From Sphingomonas ginsenosidivorax (GTDB lineage: Bacteria > Pseudomonadota > Alphaproteobacteria > Sphingomonadales > Sphingomonadaceae), in NCBI RefSeq assembly GCF_007995065.1, contig NZ_VOQR01000001.1:1615001-1679000 (forward strand): a DNA stretch of 64,000 nt, given 5' to 3'. This document shows, one piece after another, positions 15,179 through 22,849 of this stretch. Below the pieces are notes generated by a model. It did no database searches, was not told the DNA's origin, and saw only the letters and a list, made by a program, of their open reading frames with translations. How positions within the stretch are numbered: position 1 is the first letter of the stretch; the number at the start of each line of letters is the position of its first letter. The position numbers and the translations under genes are program-made.

Positions 15179-15781
15179 TTATGCCGCGAGCTTCGCCGCC
15201 GTCTCGGCGATCCGCTTGCCCTGGTACCGCGCACCCGCCAGCTCTTCCGCATGCGGCTGGCGCGAACCGTCGCCGTCCGCGATCGTCGTCGCGCCGTACG
15301 GCGACCCGCCGAGGACTTCGCTGACGCCCATCTGCCCCTTGAACCCGTAATCAAGCCCGACGATCGTCATCCCATGATGCATCAGGTTGGTCAGGATCGA
15401 GAACAACGTCGTCTCCTGCCCGCCATGCTGGCTCGCGGTCGAGGTGAACGCGCCGCCGACCTTGCCGACCAGTGCGCCCGAGAACCACAGCCCACCGGTC
15501 GTGTCCCAGAACTGCGCCATCTGCGCGGGCATCCGGCCGAAGCGCGTCGGCGCACCGACGATAATCGCGTCATAGTCCTTGAGCGCATCGGGGCCCTCGA
15601 TCACCTCGTGCGCGGTGTCGGTCTTGAAGTGCGCGGCAGCGACGACCTCGGGCGGTGCGGTCTCGGCGACGCGGCGGATATCGACCTCGGCGCCACCGGC
15701 GCGCGCGCCCTCGGCGACCGCATCCGCCATCTGCTCGAGATGGCCGTAGGACGAGTAATAGAGCACGAGAACCTTGGTCAT
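15179..15781 (-). CDS. wrbA: NAD(P)H:quinone oxidoreductase WrbA
   Basis: A 200-residue flavodoxin-like enzyme. The FMN phosphate loop is [14 protein letters not shown] at the N-terminus, [13 protein letters not shown] follows at about residue 75, and the WrbA-typical [13 protein letters not shown] segment is near residue 112. It reduces quinones by two electrons and so protects against redox cycling. The start ATG has AAGGA seven bases upstream. The longer open frame begins in a repeat element and is not used. Confidence 0.94.
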
Positions 15782-15804
15782 GGGGTATCCTTTGTCTTCT
15801 GCAC

Positions 15805-15916
15805 CCCCTCCCGCTTGCGGGAGGGGGCCGGGGGGTGGGCGCCCGCTTTCCACGGGCGGTGCAAGTCGGGGCGAGCGCGAGCCCACCCCCCAACCCCCTC
15901 CCGCAAGCGGGAGGGG
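15805..15916. repeat. Paired-hairpin intergenic repeat (family C')
   Basis: CCCCTCCCGCTTGCGGGAGGGG on the left is matched by CCCCTCCCGCAAGCGGGAGGGG on the right, with GGGGGGTGGGC / GCCCACCCCCC blocks inside. It separates wrbA from the pirin gene on the same strand. Confidence 0.85.
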
Positions 15917-16642: not shown

Positions 16643-16745
16643 GGAAAGTCTCCAATCTGTTGAGACCAAGATAGGCGATGCGATCACACCGTAAATAGAA
16701 ACGCTGGAAACCGATCGTTTCGTTTGCCATGGTGGCAGGGCGTAT

Positions 16746-16850
16746 CTCCCCTCCCTGGAAGGGAGGGGTCGGGGGTGGGTCGGCTTGGGGCTGGCGCAGC
16801 ATTCCCCCGATAGCGACCCACCCCCAGCCCCTCCCTTCCAGGGAGGGGAG
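16746..16850. repeat. Paired-hairpin intergenic repeat (family C)
   Basis: CTCCCCTCCCTGGAAGGGAGG on the left faces CCTCCCTTCCAGGGAGGGGAG on the right. It fills most of the gap between the divergent pirin and LysR genes, so it may affect one or both promoters. Similar copies lie at 21860 and 28530. Confidence 0.85.
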
Positions 16851-16871
16851 CCTCGGCCACGGAGACCCACC

Positions 16872-17765
16872 ATGCGCCTGCCCGATCTCGAAGCCTGGGC
16901 GATCTTCGCCAGCGTCGTCGAGCACAAGTCGTTCAGCGCCGCTGCCGACACGATCGGTCTCAGCAAGGCGACCGTCTCCAAGGCGATTACCCGGCTGGAG
17001 GCGCATCTCGGCCAGTCGCTGTTCCACCGCACCTCGCGCCGGCTCGCGCTCACCGAAGCCGGCAAGCCGCTCGCCGAACACGCCGCGCGCATCCTCGCCG
17101 AAGCGCGCGCCGCGGAAGAGTCCGCCAACGACTCCGCCAGCGCCCCCACCGGCCGGGTCCGGCTCGCCGCGCCGATGAGCTTCGGCATCACCGACATCGC
17201 GCCGTTGCTCGCCGACTTCCTGGCCGCCCATCCCGGCATCGAGATCGAGCTCCACCTCTCCGACGCGCGTGTCGACATCGTCGCCGAAGGCTTCGACGTC
17301 GCGCTCCGCATCGCGTCGCTGCCCGACAGTTCGCTCCGCGCACGCCGGCTGTGCGGCATCACCACGCACATCGTCGCTGCCCCCGCCTATCTCGCCGCGC
17401 GCGGCACCCCCACGCACCCCGCGCAACTCGGCGAGCATGCGCTGTTCGGCTATACCAACGTCACCGGGCCGTGGCGCTTCCAGCGCGCGGGTGAGGGCGA
17501 CGTGTCGATCCGCGCGCAGGGCCAGCTCTCCGCCAACAGCGGCGAGGCGCTGGTCCCCGCACTGGTCGCCGGGCTCGGCATCGCGCTGCTGCCGAGCTTC
17601 ATCATCGCCGAGCACCTCGCATCGGGCGCGCTGGTCGAAATCCTCGCCGACTGGGCCCCGCCGCCGATCGGCCTCCATCTGCTCACCCCGCCCAGCCCGT
17701 TACGCCCAGCCCGCGTCGAGGCGCTGATCGCCTTCCTCAGCCAGCGCCTGCGCGACGCGCGCTAG
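16872..17765 (+). CDS. LysR family transcriptional regulator
   Basis: A 297-residue regulator. The winged helix-turn-helix is at residues about 5-62 (SFSAAADTIGLSKATVSKAITRLEAHLG) and a periplasmic-binding-protein-like effector domain covers residues about 88-290. GGAG seven bases before ATG 16872 sets the start. It is divergent from the pirin gene and likely regulates it in response to a small molecule. The effector is not known. Confidence 0.92.
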   Translation: MRLPDLEAWAIFASVVEHKSFSAAADTIGLSKATVSKAITRLEAHLGQSLFHRTSRRLALTEAGKPLAEHAARILAEARAAEESANDSASAPTGRVRLAAPMSFGITDIAPLLADFLAAHPGIEIELHLSDARVDIVAEGFDVALRIASLPDSSLRARRLCGITTHIVAAPAYLAARGTPTHPAQLGEHALFGYTNVTGPWRFQRAGEGDVSIRAQGQLSANSGEALVPALVAGLGIALLPSFIIAEHLASGALVEILADWAPPPIGLHLLTPPSPLRPARVEALIAFLSQRLRDAR

Positions 17766-18787: not shown

Positions 18788-18807
18788 CCACTACCGTTTG
18801 GGGGAGC

Positions 18808-18846
18808 AAAGGCCGCGGCACCGGGGGGCGCCGCGGCCTTTTTTTG
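18808..18846 (+). terminator. Rho-independent terminator of ctrA
   Basis: A nine-base perfect GC stem (GGCCGCGGC at 18811-18819 with GCCGCGGCC at 18830-18838) is followed by seven T residues and preceded by AAA. It lies 24 bases after the ctrA stop. The A/T flanks could also let it work for the converging immunity gene. Confidence 0.9.
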
Positions 18847-18893
18847 TCTACCTTCCCGTCTGATCGGGCGCCGGCTTTCAACGCGTCGTTTCG

Positions 18894-19313
18894 CTATAGA
18901 TCGTAGCTGGGAATGTCGTCATCCTCGGGCCACGGCGGATAGACGATCGGCTTGTCCCCGAAATAGCGCTTCACGATGCGATCGCGGCGAGCGAGTGGGC
19001 GCTCATCGGGATCGATGTCCTCCTTGTAGTTGTACGCGACTTGGAAACTGTCTCCCTGGATCAGATACTCGATCTCTGCCCAACGATTCTTCGGTTCCTC
19101 GGCGTCCCAGAGATCGAGCAGCGCGTCTCCCAGGCGGTCGAGATCCGCCCAGCGGAACACGATGCTGTTGCCACGGTTCTTAAAGATCGCAGGCGCAACG
19201 CAGTTCCTATCGACCTCCGCGTGCAACAATGTGCCATCAAGCGGGTATTCGGTGTCCTCGGCCAGAAGTCGGCCGATCTTTGCGAGTATCCTATCCGTTT
19301 CGTCACTTGCCAT
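18894..19313 (-). CDS. Probable YezG-like (DUF600) immunity protein
   Basis: A 139-residue acidic protein starting 11 bases inside the end of the nuclease gene. It has no signal peptide or membrane segment. The C-terminal half (about residues 65-135) has the pattern of YezG-type immunity proteins: an IEYLIQGDSFQVAYNYKED strand region, then LARRDRIVKRYFGDKPIVYP. In Bacillus, YezG neutralises the YeeF nuclease, which shares the domain found in the gene upstream here. Base composition is low for this genome (50% GC at 19021-19080). I infer it protects the cell from the neighbouring nuclease. The family call is by eye and moderately sure. Confidence 0.65.
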   Translation of the reverse strand: MASDETDRILAKIGRLLAEDTEYPLDGTLLHAEVDRNCVAPAIFKNRGNSIVFRWADLDRLGDALLDLWDAEEPKNRWAEIEYLIQGDSFQVAYNYKEDIDPDERPLARRDRIVKRYFGDKPIVYPPWPEDDDIPSYDL

Positions 19314-20094
19314 CGATCTTCTCCTTCCGCTCGTTCGGAAATTTTTTGCTCTTGAGAGTGCCGTTGACGATGAACCAAACATTGATGGCCGATGGCCGCG
19401 TTGATCCGTCCCCATAAACGGGCGAGATCTTGACGGTGACCCTGGCCCCTGCGCGCTTCTCGCGCGCCCACTCGTCTTCGAGCACGCGGTAGCCACCGCG
19501 ATTGAAGTTTGCGTCTTGCGCGAAATGGTTGAAGGCCTCGGTCGGTCCCTTGAACCGCGCGGCGATATAGTGGCCTCCGTCATCGGTCGGTCGCCGGTCC
19601 GGCCCGCCCGCCTGCGCCTGCACCGTTCGGGAACGCACCTGTTTGTCGGCAACGACAAGAACGCCTGAAACGCGCCGCGTTCGTCCGCTGGCGTCGATCC
19701 AATATTCATAGCCGTTACGGACTTCGCGGCGATCTGGCGACGTCTCATCTACAGGTCGCTCATCTCGCGGCGGCAGTTCCGCGTAGGCGATCTGCCCGGC
19801 AGGCGATGATGCTACCGGCTTGGTTTCGGCTCGCTTTTTCTTCGGTGGCTCATCCCAGCTTCCGCTAGCGCCCCCGCCACCAAAGCGTCCTCCTCCTCCG
19901 CCGGTGAAGCCTCCACCCTGCCAACTGCCGTCGTGGAAATTGCGACCGTTCGCAAAGGTGAACCGACCATTTTTCGGATCGTGCCACGGGTTGTACTTGA
20001 GTTCGCCGCCATCGGCCGTACGGGCGGTTGGAAGACGCCCGGTCCTCAGCCAGGTTGAGAAGGCATATCGTCTCGCGCTACCGGCCATGTCCAT
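19303..20094 (-). CDS. DNA/RNA non-specific endonuclease toxin (EndoNS_2 / YeeF-type)
   Basis: A 263-residue protein in three parts. An N-terminal segment has RRYAFSTWLRTGRL and a YNPWHDPKNGRFTFANG motif. A glycine-rich, poorly conserved linker covers about residues 50-120. The C-terminal nuclease domain runs from about residue 150, with DDGGHYIAARFKGP (catalytic His in the GGH core), QDANFNRGGYRVLEDEWA and KISPVYGDGSTRP, all characteristic of the EndoNS_2 family. ATG 20094 has GGGGTGG upstream and lies about ten bases after the predicted transcription start. An alternative TTG at 20109 adds five residues. It overlaps the immunity gene. No Sec signal, PAAR, LXG or RHS module is visible, so the delivery route, if any, is unknown. 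Confidence 0.8.
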   Translation of the reverse strand: MDMAGSARRYAFSTWLRTGRLPTARTADGGELKYNPWHDPKNGRFTFANGRNFHDGSWQGGGFTGGGGGRFGGGGASGSWDEPPKKKRAETKPVASSPAGQIAYAELPPRDERPVDETSPDRREVRNGYEYWIDASGRTRRVSGVLVVADKQVRSRTVQAQAGGPDRRPTDDGGHYIAARFKGPTEAFNHFAQDANFNRGGYRVLEDEWAREKRAGARVTVKISPVYGDGSTRPSAINVWFIVNGTLKSKKFPNERKEKIDGK

Positions 20095-20110
20095 GATGCC
20101 ACCCCGCAAC

Positions 20111-20138
20111 AGTATAAGGGTTGGAACATTTCAGGAAC
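20111..20138 (-). promoter_or_regulatory. Promoter of the nuclease/immunity pair with embedded LexA-type box
   Basis: On the minus strand GTTC-N7-GTTC (GAAC at 20124-20127 and 20135-20138 on the plus strand) is an exact alphaproteobacterial LexA-box format. Seven bases downstream is a strong -10 hexamer TATACT (20116-20111). The box covers the expected -35 region, so bound LexA would block RNA polymerase. The surrounding TTGGAA..TTCCAA ends form an outer imperfect dyad. This predicts SOS induction of the pair. Confidence 0.65.
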
Positions 20139-20183
20139 ATTTTCCAACAAGTCAAGCGCGGAAAAGGGAGTGTTAGCGCGCCG

Positions 20184-21859: not shown

Positions 21860-21965
21860 CTCCCCTCCCTGAAAGGGAGGGGTTGGGGGTGGGTCGGCTG
21901 GGGGCAGTCGCACCGTCACCCAACCGACCAACCCACCCCCGGCCCCTCCCTTCCAGGGAGGGGAG
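21860..21965. repeat. Paired-hairpin intergenic repeat (family C)
   Basis: CTCCCCTCCCTGAAAGGGAGG faces CCTCCCTTCCAGGGAGGGGAG. It lies between the reductase stop and the proposed TTG start of the amidohydrolase. Its right-hand arm read on the minus strand provides a purine-rich stretch just before that start. Confidence 0.85.
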
Positions 21966-21988
21966 CAGCATGGCGATCATGGACGTGT

Positions 21989-22849
21989 TCACTTCGGCAA
22001 TCTCCGCACCAGGGCACTCGTATCCTGCCGACCACCGCCCAGCGCCTGCACCTCGGCGTAGAATTGATCGACCAACGCCGCGACCGGCAGCACCGCGCCG
22101 TTCCCCTTGGCCTCGTCGAGCGCAAGCCCCAGGTCCTTGCGCATCCAGTCGACCGCGAACCCGAAGTCGAACCGGTCCTCGCCCATCGATTCCCAGCGGT
22201 TTACCATCTGCCAGCTCTGCGCCGCGCCGCCCGAGATCGCCTCGAACACCTTGTCCAGGTCGAGCTCGCTCGCCTGCGCGAACCGCAGCGATTCGGCGAC
22301 GCCCTGCAGCACGCCCGCGATCGCGATCTGGTTGCACATCTTGGTGGTCTGCCCGGCGCCTGCCGCGCCGACATGGACGATCCGCGCGGCATAGGCGTCC
22401 ATGAACGGCGTCGCCTTCGCGACCGCCTCCTCGGTGCCGCCGCACATGATCGAGAGCTTGCCGTTCTCGGCCCCGGCCTGGCCGCCGGAAACGGGCGCGT
22501 CGACGACGAGCAACCCCTTGCCCTCCTCGGCCAGCCGCCGCGCGATCTTCGCGGATACCGTCGTATGATCGACGAACAGTGCGCCCGGCGTCATCACCGC
22601 GAACGCGCCGTCGCTGCCCAGCGTCACCGCCGCCAGGTCGTCGTCGTTGCCGACGCAGGTGAACACCGCCTCCGCGCCCTTGGCTGCCTCGGCCGGGGTC
22701 GCCGCGACGCCACCCCCATGTTTCGCCGCCCAGGCCTCCGCCTTCGCCCGCGTGCGGTTGTAGACGGTGACGTCGTGCCCTGCCGCGACCAGGTGCCCCG
22801 CCATCGGCGCACCCATCACGCCGGTCCCTATGAATGCCAGTTTTGCCAT
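21989..22849 (-). CDS. 3-hydroxyisobutyrate dehydrogenase-like NAD(P)-dependent reductase
   Basis: A 286-residue beta-hydroxyacid dehydrogenase. The N-terminal AFIGTGVMGAPMAGHL is the GxGxMGxxM dinucleotide loop. DAPVSGGQAGAENGKL is the substrate-binding motif, and the catalytic Lys is in GAGQTTKMCNQI (about residue 170). Candidate activities are 3-hydroxyisobutyrate dehydrogenase (MmsB, valine pathway), tartronate semialdehyde reductase (GarR) or succinic semialdehyde reductase. The sequence alone does not decide. It precedes the amidohydrolase on the same strand and is divergent from ilvA. Confidence 0.88.
   Translation of the reverse strand: MAKLAFIGTGVMGAPMAGHLVAAGHDVTVYNRTRAKAEAWAAKHGGGVAATPAEAAKGAEAVFTCVGNDDDLAAVTLGSDGAFAVMTPGALFVDHTTVSAKIARRLAEEGKGLLVVDAPVSGGQAGAENGKLSIMCGGTEEAVAKATPFMDAYAARIVHVGAAGAGQTTKMCNQIAIAGVLQGVAESLRFAQASELDLDKVFEAISGGAAQSWQMVNRWESMGEDRFDFGFAVDWMRKDLGLALDEAKGNGAVLPVAALVDQFYAEVQALGGGRQDTSALVRRLPK

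What the first reader, a model, noticed from the sequence alone, without database searches (positions are those of the whole stretch)
18894..20138. A compact nuclease/immunity module behind a LexA-box promoter
Two overlapping genes encode an EndoNS_2 nuclease and a YezG-like partner, the domain pair known from Bacillus YeeF-YezG. Here the nuclease lacks the LXG, PAAR, RHS or signal-peptide parts that deliver such toxins, and the promoter carries an exact GTTC-N7-GTTC box over its -35 region. Sampled lines are 48-50% GC against far richer flanks, a sign of transfer. A damage-induced, non-delivered or lysis-released nuclease with its own antidote would be an unusual setup, closer to a colicin or an abortive defence than to contact-dependent killing.
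Basis: partly seen in the sequence, partly recalled or inferred. Interest (0 to 1): 0.85.

Follow-up and report, generated by a model that had tools for sequence, protein, structure and literature searches.

The report
Damage-switched nuclease with phage-like tag
A small bacterial gene pair encodes a DNA-cutting toxin and its antidote, sits behind what looks like a DNA-damage switch, and belongs to a large, apparently undescribed family of Sphingomonas toxins whose front end resembles tags on virus-head proteins, with close cousins built into virus-like gene-transfer clusters.

Summary

It has at least three different toxin domains, each with its own downstream partner family. 103 of 115 distinct upstream regions carry GTT[C/G]-N7-GTTC, against about 3% of random segments. 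Multiple and orphan immunity genes point to competition between cells.

The tag (KFNPWHDPxxGRFTF), Gly-rich linker, same nuclease and partner recur as a C-terminal extension of the portal protein of gene-transfer-agent-like clusters; in one such cluster a tagged toxin gene lies between two tail genes. Best reading: an SOS-induced, colicin-like polymorphic toxin, with tag-guided loading into a phage-like particle as the boldest open mechanism. Nothing was tested experimentally; co-occurrence with the portal gene is weak (p = 0.055) and delivery is inferred.

The parts
19303..20094 (-). toxin gene: 263-aa tagged Endonuclea_NS_2 nuclease
   Evidence: translation; PF13930 79.6 bits; aligns to EssD/EsaD nuclease 8guo_B, E 5.1e-11, with the DDGGH His
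19945..20094 (-). N-terminal family module (residues 1-50): AFSTWLRTGRLP...ELKYNPWHDPKNGRFTF tag
   Evidence: shared with proteins having other C-termini; profile A1 hits 108 of 250 genus genomes; HDP..GRFT part also in phage head-region proteins and GTA-type portals
19855..19917 (-). Gly-rich linker (residues 60-80) GGGFTGGGGGRFGGGGASGSW
   Evidence: a like linker (GGGGSFGGGGASGSW) follows the tag in portal-nuclease fusions
19378..19716 (-). Endonuclea_NS_2 catalytic domain (residues 127-239), DDGGH...NFNR
18894..19313 (-). partner/immunity gene, 139 aa, EsaG/YezG fold, overlaps the toxin gene by 11 nt
20124..20138 (-). LexA-type box GTTCCTGAAATGTTC
   Evidence: conserved in the family
20150..20155 (-). 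probable -35 TTGACT
   Evidence: 17 nt before GAAATG; TTGAC at this place in many family promoters
20127..20132 (-). probable -10 GAAATG inside the box (alternative TATACT at 20111-20116)
   Evidence: inference, transcription start not mapped

Best explanation
An SOS-controlled toxin-immunity cassette of a Sphingomonadaceae polymorphic toxin family. LexA sits on the promoter; DNA damage removes it and toxin and immunity are made together from overlapping genes (inferred from the box and overlap). The partner holds the EndoNS_2 nuclease inactive in the producer, probably as EsaG does EsaD, by inserting into and deforming the nuclease (inferred from fold and pairing). Cells that die or lyse after damage release the tagged nuclease, free or in a phage-type particle, and it degrades DNA in close relatives that lack the matching immunity gene. 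Shown here: domains, gene pairing, conserved box, module swapping, multiple and orphan immunity genes, the sister fusion to a GTA-type portal. Inferred: induction, inhibition, release, entry and killing.
Against: No lysis gene, signal peptide or known receptor or translocation domain was recognised (Pfam and by eye). No expression or killing data. Most boxes (67 of 115) deviate in one conserved base (GTTG); whether LexA binds those is unknown. 12 of 115 upstream regions lack the box. The sequences are related, so the counts are not independent. P0002 itself does not reach the YezG Pfam model. A profile of 34 partners found no EsaG chain by sequence; the link is by fold and by Pfam hits of members.
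Confidence: 0.66

Rival explanations
1. Particle-loaded toxin (a sharper form of the best explanation): the KFNPWHDPxxGRFTF tag addresses the SOS-made toxin to the head or portal of a gene-transfer-agent or prophage particle, which carries it into other cells; in some lineages the same cargo was fused to the GTA-type portal itself.
For: Tag, Gly linker, nuclease and partner recur as a C-terminal extension of a GTA-type portal in clusters syntenic with this genome's own GTA-like cluster. On one 18.5-kb viral contig (L086 and L088) a free-standing tagged toxin gene of the third family, apparently frame-broken, lies between the tail genes of such a cluster whose portal also bears the tag. Strong portal matches in 188 of 250 genus genomes (E under about 1e-80, my cut). 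In L117, L124 and L125 tagged genes lie beside head morphogenesis, head protease, portal or capsid genes. A portal extension also carries a cell-wall Hydrolase_2 domain (L097). Portal-borne effectors are a known theme (PMC5512222, passages).
Against: 20 of 108 genomes with a tagged toxin lack a strong portal match, and the association is weak (88/108 against 100/142, p = 0.055). This genome's own portal has no extension. The tag's function is unknown. PF13547 GTA_TIM found nothing in 15 genomes or records. Proteins tested beside the tags in L098 and L130 (one each) matched no head family. A link of the first ~30 residues to the capsid N-arm was not supported.
Confidence: 0.3
2. Intracellular SOS death or defence nuclease: like Caulobacter BapE, the nuclease acts in the damaged cell itself, and the partner is an antitoxin that sets a threshold.
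For: SOS-type box; no recognised export part; BapE precedent: late SOS gene that promotes damage-induced apoptosis (PMC12700426, passages).
Against: Different toxins behind one tag, multiple and orphan immunity genes and a family member with LysM and a VgrG3-type domain fit action on other cells better; the portal-borne sister would be carried by a particle.
Confidence: 0.18
3. The box is not a working LexA site; another regulator controls the family.
For: 67 of 115 regions have GTTG instead of the first GTTC, and surrounding bases (TTGACTTGTTGGAAAATGTT) are often conserved too.
Against: 36 of 115 have the exact alphaproteobacterial motif (the Caulobacter motif is GTTCN7GTTC); divergent promoters keep the box while flanks differ; several lexA promoters share the TTGAC-box layout.
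Confidence: 0.1

Closest known systems
EsaD-EsaG (S. aureus) and YeeF-YezG (B. subtilis), type VII polymorphic toxin pairs
   Same: Same nuclease family and aligned catalytic region; partner model has the EsaG fold; immunity gene directly downstream here; [quoted passage not shown]
   Different: No LXG or type VII part recognised; N-terminus is a ~50-aa tag; LexA-type promoter; alphaproteobacterial host.
Nuclease colicins and S-type pyocins (features recalled; listing)
   Same: SOS-type promoter, toxin then immunity gene, Gly-rich segment near the N-terminus.
   Different: No recognised receptor or translocation domain, no lysis gene seen downstream, different nuclease and immunity folds.
MuF polymorphic toxins of temperate phages (PMC5576092, passages)
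   Same: Polymorphic toxin domains tied to the phage portal-terminase system.
   Different: No MuF domain in P0001; here a short tag, either on a free-standing chromosomal gene or on the portal itself; portal cluster is GTA-like.
Polyvalent proteins and portal-fused effectors (PMC5512222, passages)
   Same: Effector domains fused to portal proteins and thought to travel in the virion.
   Different: EndoNS_2 with a cognate immunity gene, in a GTA-type cluster, with free-standing sisters behind a LexA-type box; the passages seen name no such tag.
Caulobacter BapE (PMC12700426, passages)
   Same: SOS-controlled endonuclease in an alphaproteobacterium.
   Different: Described as promoting death of its own damaged cell; homology to P0001 was not tested.

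Membership tests
Endonuclea_NS_2 (PF13930) | profile match over the curated cut-off | tested here: met
   79.6 bits vs 27
Endonuclea_NS_2 (PF13930) | catalytic His and metal-binding Asn | tested here: met
   DDGGH and NR of NFNR align with EsaD; N551 followed by R552 in EsaD as told in PMC9616950 (passages); residue match by my reading of the alignment
Endonuclea_NS_2 (PF13930) | nuclease activity | not testable with these tools
   needs purified protein
YezG-like immunity (PF04634) | Pfam profile match of P0002 itself | tested here: not met
   no hit at E <= 1; 10 of 34 members hit, best 9.7e-6. Hence called YezG-like by fold, not filed as a PF04634 member
YezG-like immunity (PF04634) | EsaG/DUF600 fold | tested here: met
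Polymorphic toxin system | shared N-terminal part with variable C-terminal toxin domains | tested here: met
Polymorphic toxin system | cognate immunity gene directly downstream | tested here: met
   (cognacy by family pairing only)
Polymorphic toxin system | multiple or orphan immunity genes | tested here: met
   23 of 99 loci with a hit; 7 of 61 genomes
Polymorphic toxin system | kills non-immune cells | not testable with these tools
   needs co-culture
Already described polymorphic toxin classes (LXG, PAAR, RHS, MuF) | the class's N-terminal trafficking domain | tested here: not met
   PF13930 is the only Pfam match of P0001 at E <= 1; so not filed in any of these classes
Colicin/pyocin | SOS (LexA) control | tested here: inconclusive
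   box conserved, induction not measured
Colicin/pyocin | receptor and translocation domains | tested here: inconclusive
   none recognised by Pfam
Colicin/pyocin | lysis gene in the operon | tested here: not met
   the next gene after the partner is ctrA, convergent. Not filed as a colicin
GTA-like cluster (for the portal-fused sisters) | portal, capsid and tail gene order as in RcGTA-type clusters | tested here: met
   this genome: PF04860, PF05065, PF06199, NCTSP/DUF2460, PF09931/PF09356, PF13550 with Rcc01698_C in order; three viral records syntenic. RcGTA order itself recalled
GTA-like cluster (for the portal-fused sisters) | GTA_TIM model PF13547 | tested here: not met
   0 of 15 genomes or records; hence 'GTA-like', not 'GTA'
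GTA-like cluster (for the portal-fused sisters) | particles that package random host DNA | not testable with these tools
   needs particle purification

The most novel reading that the evidence does not exclude
Sphingomonads make SOS-induced toxins with a phage-head address tag so that gene-transfer-agent or phage-like particles carry killer nucleases as well as DNA; the GTA-type portal-nuclease-immunity fusions are the built-in form of the same cargo, making GTAs weapons that kill or screen non-kin recipients.
Probability: 0.27. Interest if true: 0.95.

Novelty: new variant of a known kind. Interest (0 to 1): 0.8.

Why it matters
A toxin family behind a DNA-damage-type switch, in about two fifths of the sampled genus genomes, did not appear in the listings of the papers searched. 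Its tag is shared with phage head-region proteins and with the portal of gene-transfer-agent-like clusters. If the tag loads cargo, it gives a handle on two open questions: whether GTA particles do more than carry DNA, and how free-standing bacterial toxins are routed into phage-derived machines. The pair is small and easy to test.

Tried and rejected
Capsid-mimic idea: the AFxxYLRxG...ELK string of the N-terminus resembles the N-arm of HK97-type capsids of the GTA-like clusters. hmmsearch of the N-terminal profile over six-frame translations of loci L211-L274 gave no significant hit, capsids included, and hhalign gave 33% probability over 14 columns. Left as a lead only.

Site-specific integration at tRNA genes: 30 of 60 sampled loci lie just 3' of a tRNA gene (counted by eye; at least two loci, L012/L177 and L015/L155, are the same places seen twice), but no repeat of the tRNA end longer than 12 nt follows downstream. 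No integrase-type attachment site is claimed.

Strict dependence on a GTA-like cluster in the same genome: not found.

GTA_TIM (PF13547) as GTA marker: no match in 15 genomes or records; identity rests on gene order and other models.

Tagged protein on plasmids or isolated phages: at the sensitivity used only nuclease-domain matches, in 14 plasmid records (query P0001) and 5 phage records (query the portal extension of L094).

Structure of a second toxin family or of the natural fusion: the second structure job was never accepted, nor the plain PDB fold search. That the second and third toxin families are PD-(D/E)XK-like nucleases rests on conserved residues alone and recalled motif knowledge; Pfam found nothing for two members of each.

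Rows dropped or mended: one of 116 tagged genes was left out as a duplicate upstream region; on checking, the GTTG match of L066 lies in coding sequence, so I count 103, not the script's 104. In one search five rows were skipped for length or motif and repeats merged (41 kept). In one search partner rows from L095 and L156 (misread open frames) and near-copies were left out. The label 'portal_long' also holds a few proteins that are not this portal (L093, L096, L123, L127, L128). In one search the amidohydrolase query was in a wrong frame; one search replaces it. After the filing check, searches were added: they turned up the tagged gene inside the cluster of L086/L088, for which I raised the particle rival from 0.28 to 0.30 and the novel case from 0.25 to 0.27.

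Full report

The promoter. GTTCCTGAAATGTTC lies at 20124-20138, 29 nt from the ATG. As a bare pattern it is not rare: 3 in the window, 1.3 expected. Its weight comes from relatives. Among 115 distinct upstream regions of tagged genes, 36 hold the exact GTTC-N7-GTTC and 67 GTTG-N7-GTTC, while random 200-nt segments of the same loci give 1.2% and 2.1% (the script counts 68 of the second kind, one of which, L066, lies in coding sequence). For rows anchored at the HDP motif the 200 nt reach into the gene. The genes are related, so these counts are not independent. But promoters whose flanks differ (for example L003, L046, L048, L062, L064, L192) keep the box. In the nine same-genus genomes in which both lexA and recA loci were fetched, both have GTTC-N7-GTTC upstream, and several lexA promoters share the TTGAC-then-box layout. 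GTTCN7GTTC is the LexA motif reported for Caulobacter (PMC12700426, passages). Whether LexA binds the GTTG form is unknown.

A search of 100 relatives with the nuclease found proteins that share only the N-terminal part and end in other domains. A 55-position profile of the first ~50 residues (AFSxWLRTGRxP...ELKFNPWHDPxDGRFTFAG) matches 108 of 250 genomes of the genus, 28 of 249 in the family, 13 of 197 in the order, all of them in the family, and 4 of 289 in the class, two of these outside the family and with only the HDP...GRFT part. Among 116 distinct tagged proteins, three C-terminal families stand out: EndoNS_2 (28), a second (34) and a third (24), plus rare types such as LysM with a VgrG3-type domain. 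Two members of each of the second and third had no Pfam match. Their conserved residues look like PD-(D/E)XK nucleases (motif recalled).

Partners track toxins. The gene directly downstream belongs to partner family 0 after 25 EndoNS_2 genes, to family 1 after 24 genes of the second kind and to family 2 after 18 of the third; the remaining genes are broken, cut off or lack a like open frame. In L050 nuclease and partner are one open frame (PF13930 over cut-off, PF04634 E 0.0056 below cut-off), and L028 is a similar open frame in the second family (by eye). Of 126 loci searched with the three partner families, 99 had a hit, 23 of them two or more partner genes and 5 mixed families; some of the 23 are tandem cassettes, such as the three of L140. 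Seven of 61 genomes with partner family 0 have no tagged toxin gene in the profile search. In L327 a decayed toxin stands before an intact partner of family 0 and, by eye, two more of family 1. These are marks of polymorphic toxins used between strains.

The link to phage-type particles. In viral contigs the tag and Gly-rich linker occur as a C-terminal extension of a portal protein; PF04860 was confirmed on seven of them (L088, L089, L092, L094, L097, L105, L112) and on L073 of a genome, and phrog_12 on L090. Of 28 such contigs (counted; several are near-copies), 22 continue into the same nuclease, and 21 of these are followed by a family-0 partner gene. L097 has a cell-wall Hydrolase_2 domain, L088 a lysozyme-like end judged by eye, and L105-L108 stop after the linker; L105, L107 and L108 still hold partner genes downstream. 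The portal rows are 65-86% identical to the first, and the portal is found in 112 of 149 family genomes, weak matches included. In this genome it lies at C1:3371830-3372939 without the extension, in a cluster with capsid, tail tube, NCTSP/DUF2460, Gp84_N/BR0599 and Phage-tail_3/Rcc01698_C proteins. Three viral records are syntenic with it. On a further contig (L086 and L088 are its two parts) the same order holds, the portal bears the tag, and a free-standing tagged gene of the third toxin family, apparently frame-broken, lies between the DUF2460-type and Gp84_N-type tail genes. GTA clusters in Sphingomonadales are reported (PMC9836097, passages); portal, nuclease and toxin do not occur in that text. 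In a tree of 41 nuclease domains the portal-borne ones form one side of a branch, support 93/89, so one fusion event suffices. In phage contigs L117, L124 and L125 the tag sits on small genes beside head morphogenesis, head protease, portal or capsid genes; several contigs have two or more tagged, otherwise unlike genes, and one long protein (L096) has it between domains. This suggests, without proof, an address tag for the particle head.

Evidence against the particle model. Tagged-toxin genomes have a strong portal match in 88 of 108 cases against 100 of 142 for the rest (p = 0.055), and 11 have no portal match at all. The PF13547 model found nothing. No tagged protein was found in the plasmid or phage collections with the queries used. 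Proteins tested beside tags in L098 and L130 matched no head family.

Place and transfer. The module stands between ctrA (NF045991, 421.8 bits) and an amidohydrolase gene (PF07969). In 8 of 29 relatives' loci both genes are seen, with gaps of 64-1294 bp against 1403 here, and no tagged gene was reported at those places; in the other 21 the amidohydrolase is not within the fetched flank. So this is a variable junction. The lowest G+C segment of the window lies in the module, but the low stretch extends over ctrA. Elsewhere 30 of 60 sampled loci lie about 110-150 nt 3' of tRNA genes of five kinds, without attachment repeats.

Mechanism and verdict. The most likely reading is a damage-induced, colicin-like antagonistic nuclease with its antidote, of a new polymorphic toxin type. 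Induction, inhibition, release and killing are inferred. The listings (titles and abstract starts) of paper searches showed no description of this family or of a GTA-portal nuclease; subscription papers are not held. Portal-fused effectors and MuF toxins are known (PMC5512222, PMC5576092, passages), so it is filed as a new variant of a known kind.

Noticed in passing
L009, L012, L137-L184 and others (60 loci scanned): 30 of 60 sampled tagged-toxin loci (at least two places counted twice) lie about 110-150 nt 3' of a tRNA gene on the same strand (Leu CAG, GAG, CAA; Thr CGT; Arg CCT), without attachment repeats over 12 nt.
   Followed up: partly
window 18790-20183: The ctrA-amidohydrolase junction is a variable site in relatives (gaps 64-1294 bp); in G016 (L286) it appears by eye to hold a small toxin-antitoxin-like pair.
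   Followed up: partly
L086:4952-5986 with L088: A free-standing tagged toxin gene, apparently frame-broken, lies between tail genes of a GTA-like cluster whose portal also bears the tag.
   Followed up: partly
L091, L101, L124, L126, L130: Phage contigs carry two or more otherwise unlike genes with a short N-terminal LKFNPxHDPxxGRFT-like tag; looks like an undescribed address tag.
   Followed up: partly
L096:4941 onward: A 1214-aa phage protein holds several HDPxxGRF-like tags between different domains.
   Followed up: no
L088, L097, L073: GTA-type portals with other C-terminal extensions after the same tag: lysozyme-like (by eye), cell-wall Hydrolase_2, and an unknown domain.
   Followed up: partly
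67 of 115 upstream regions, e.g. L002, L009, L012: Most family promoters have GTTG instead of the first GTTC of the LexA-type box; perhaps a weaker site kept by selection.
   Followed up: no
window 15774-15893, 16729-16900, 21916-22125: ORF translations repeat strings like PxPSREG or PPASGRG, suggesting interspersed short repeats in this genome.
   Followed up: no
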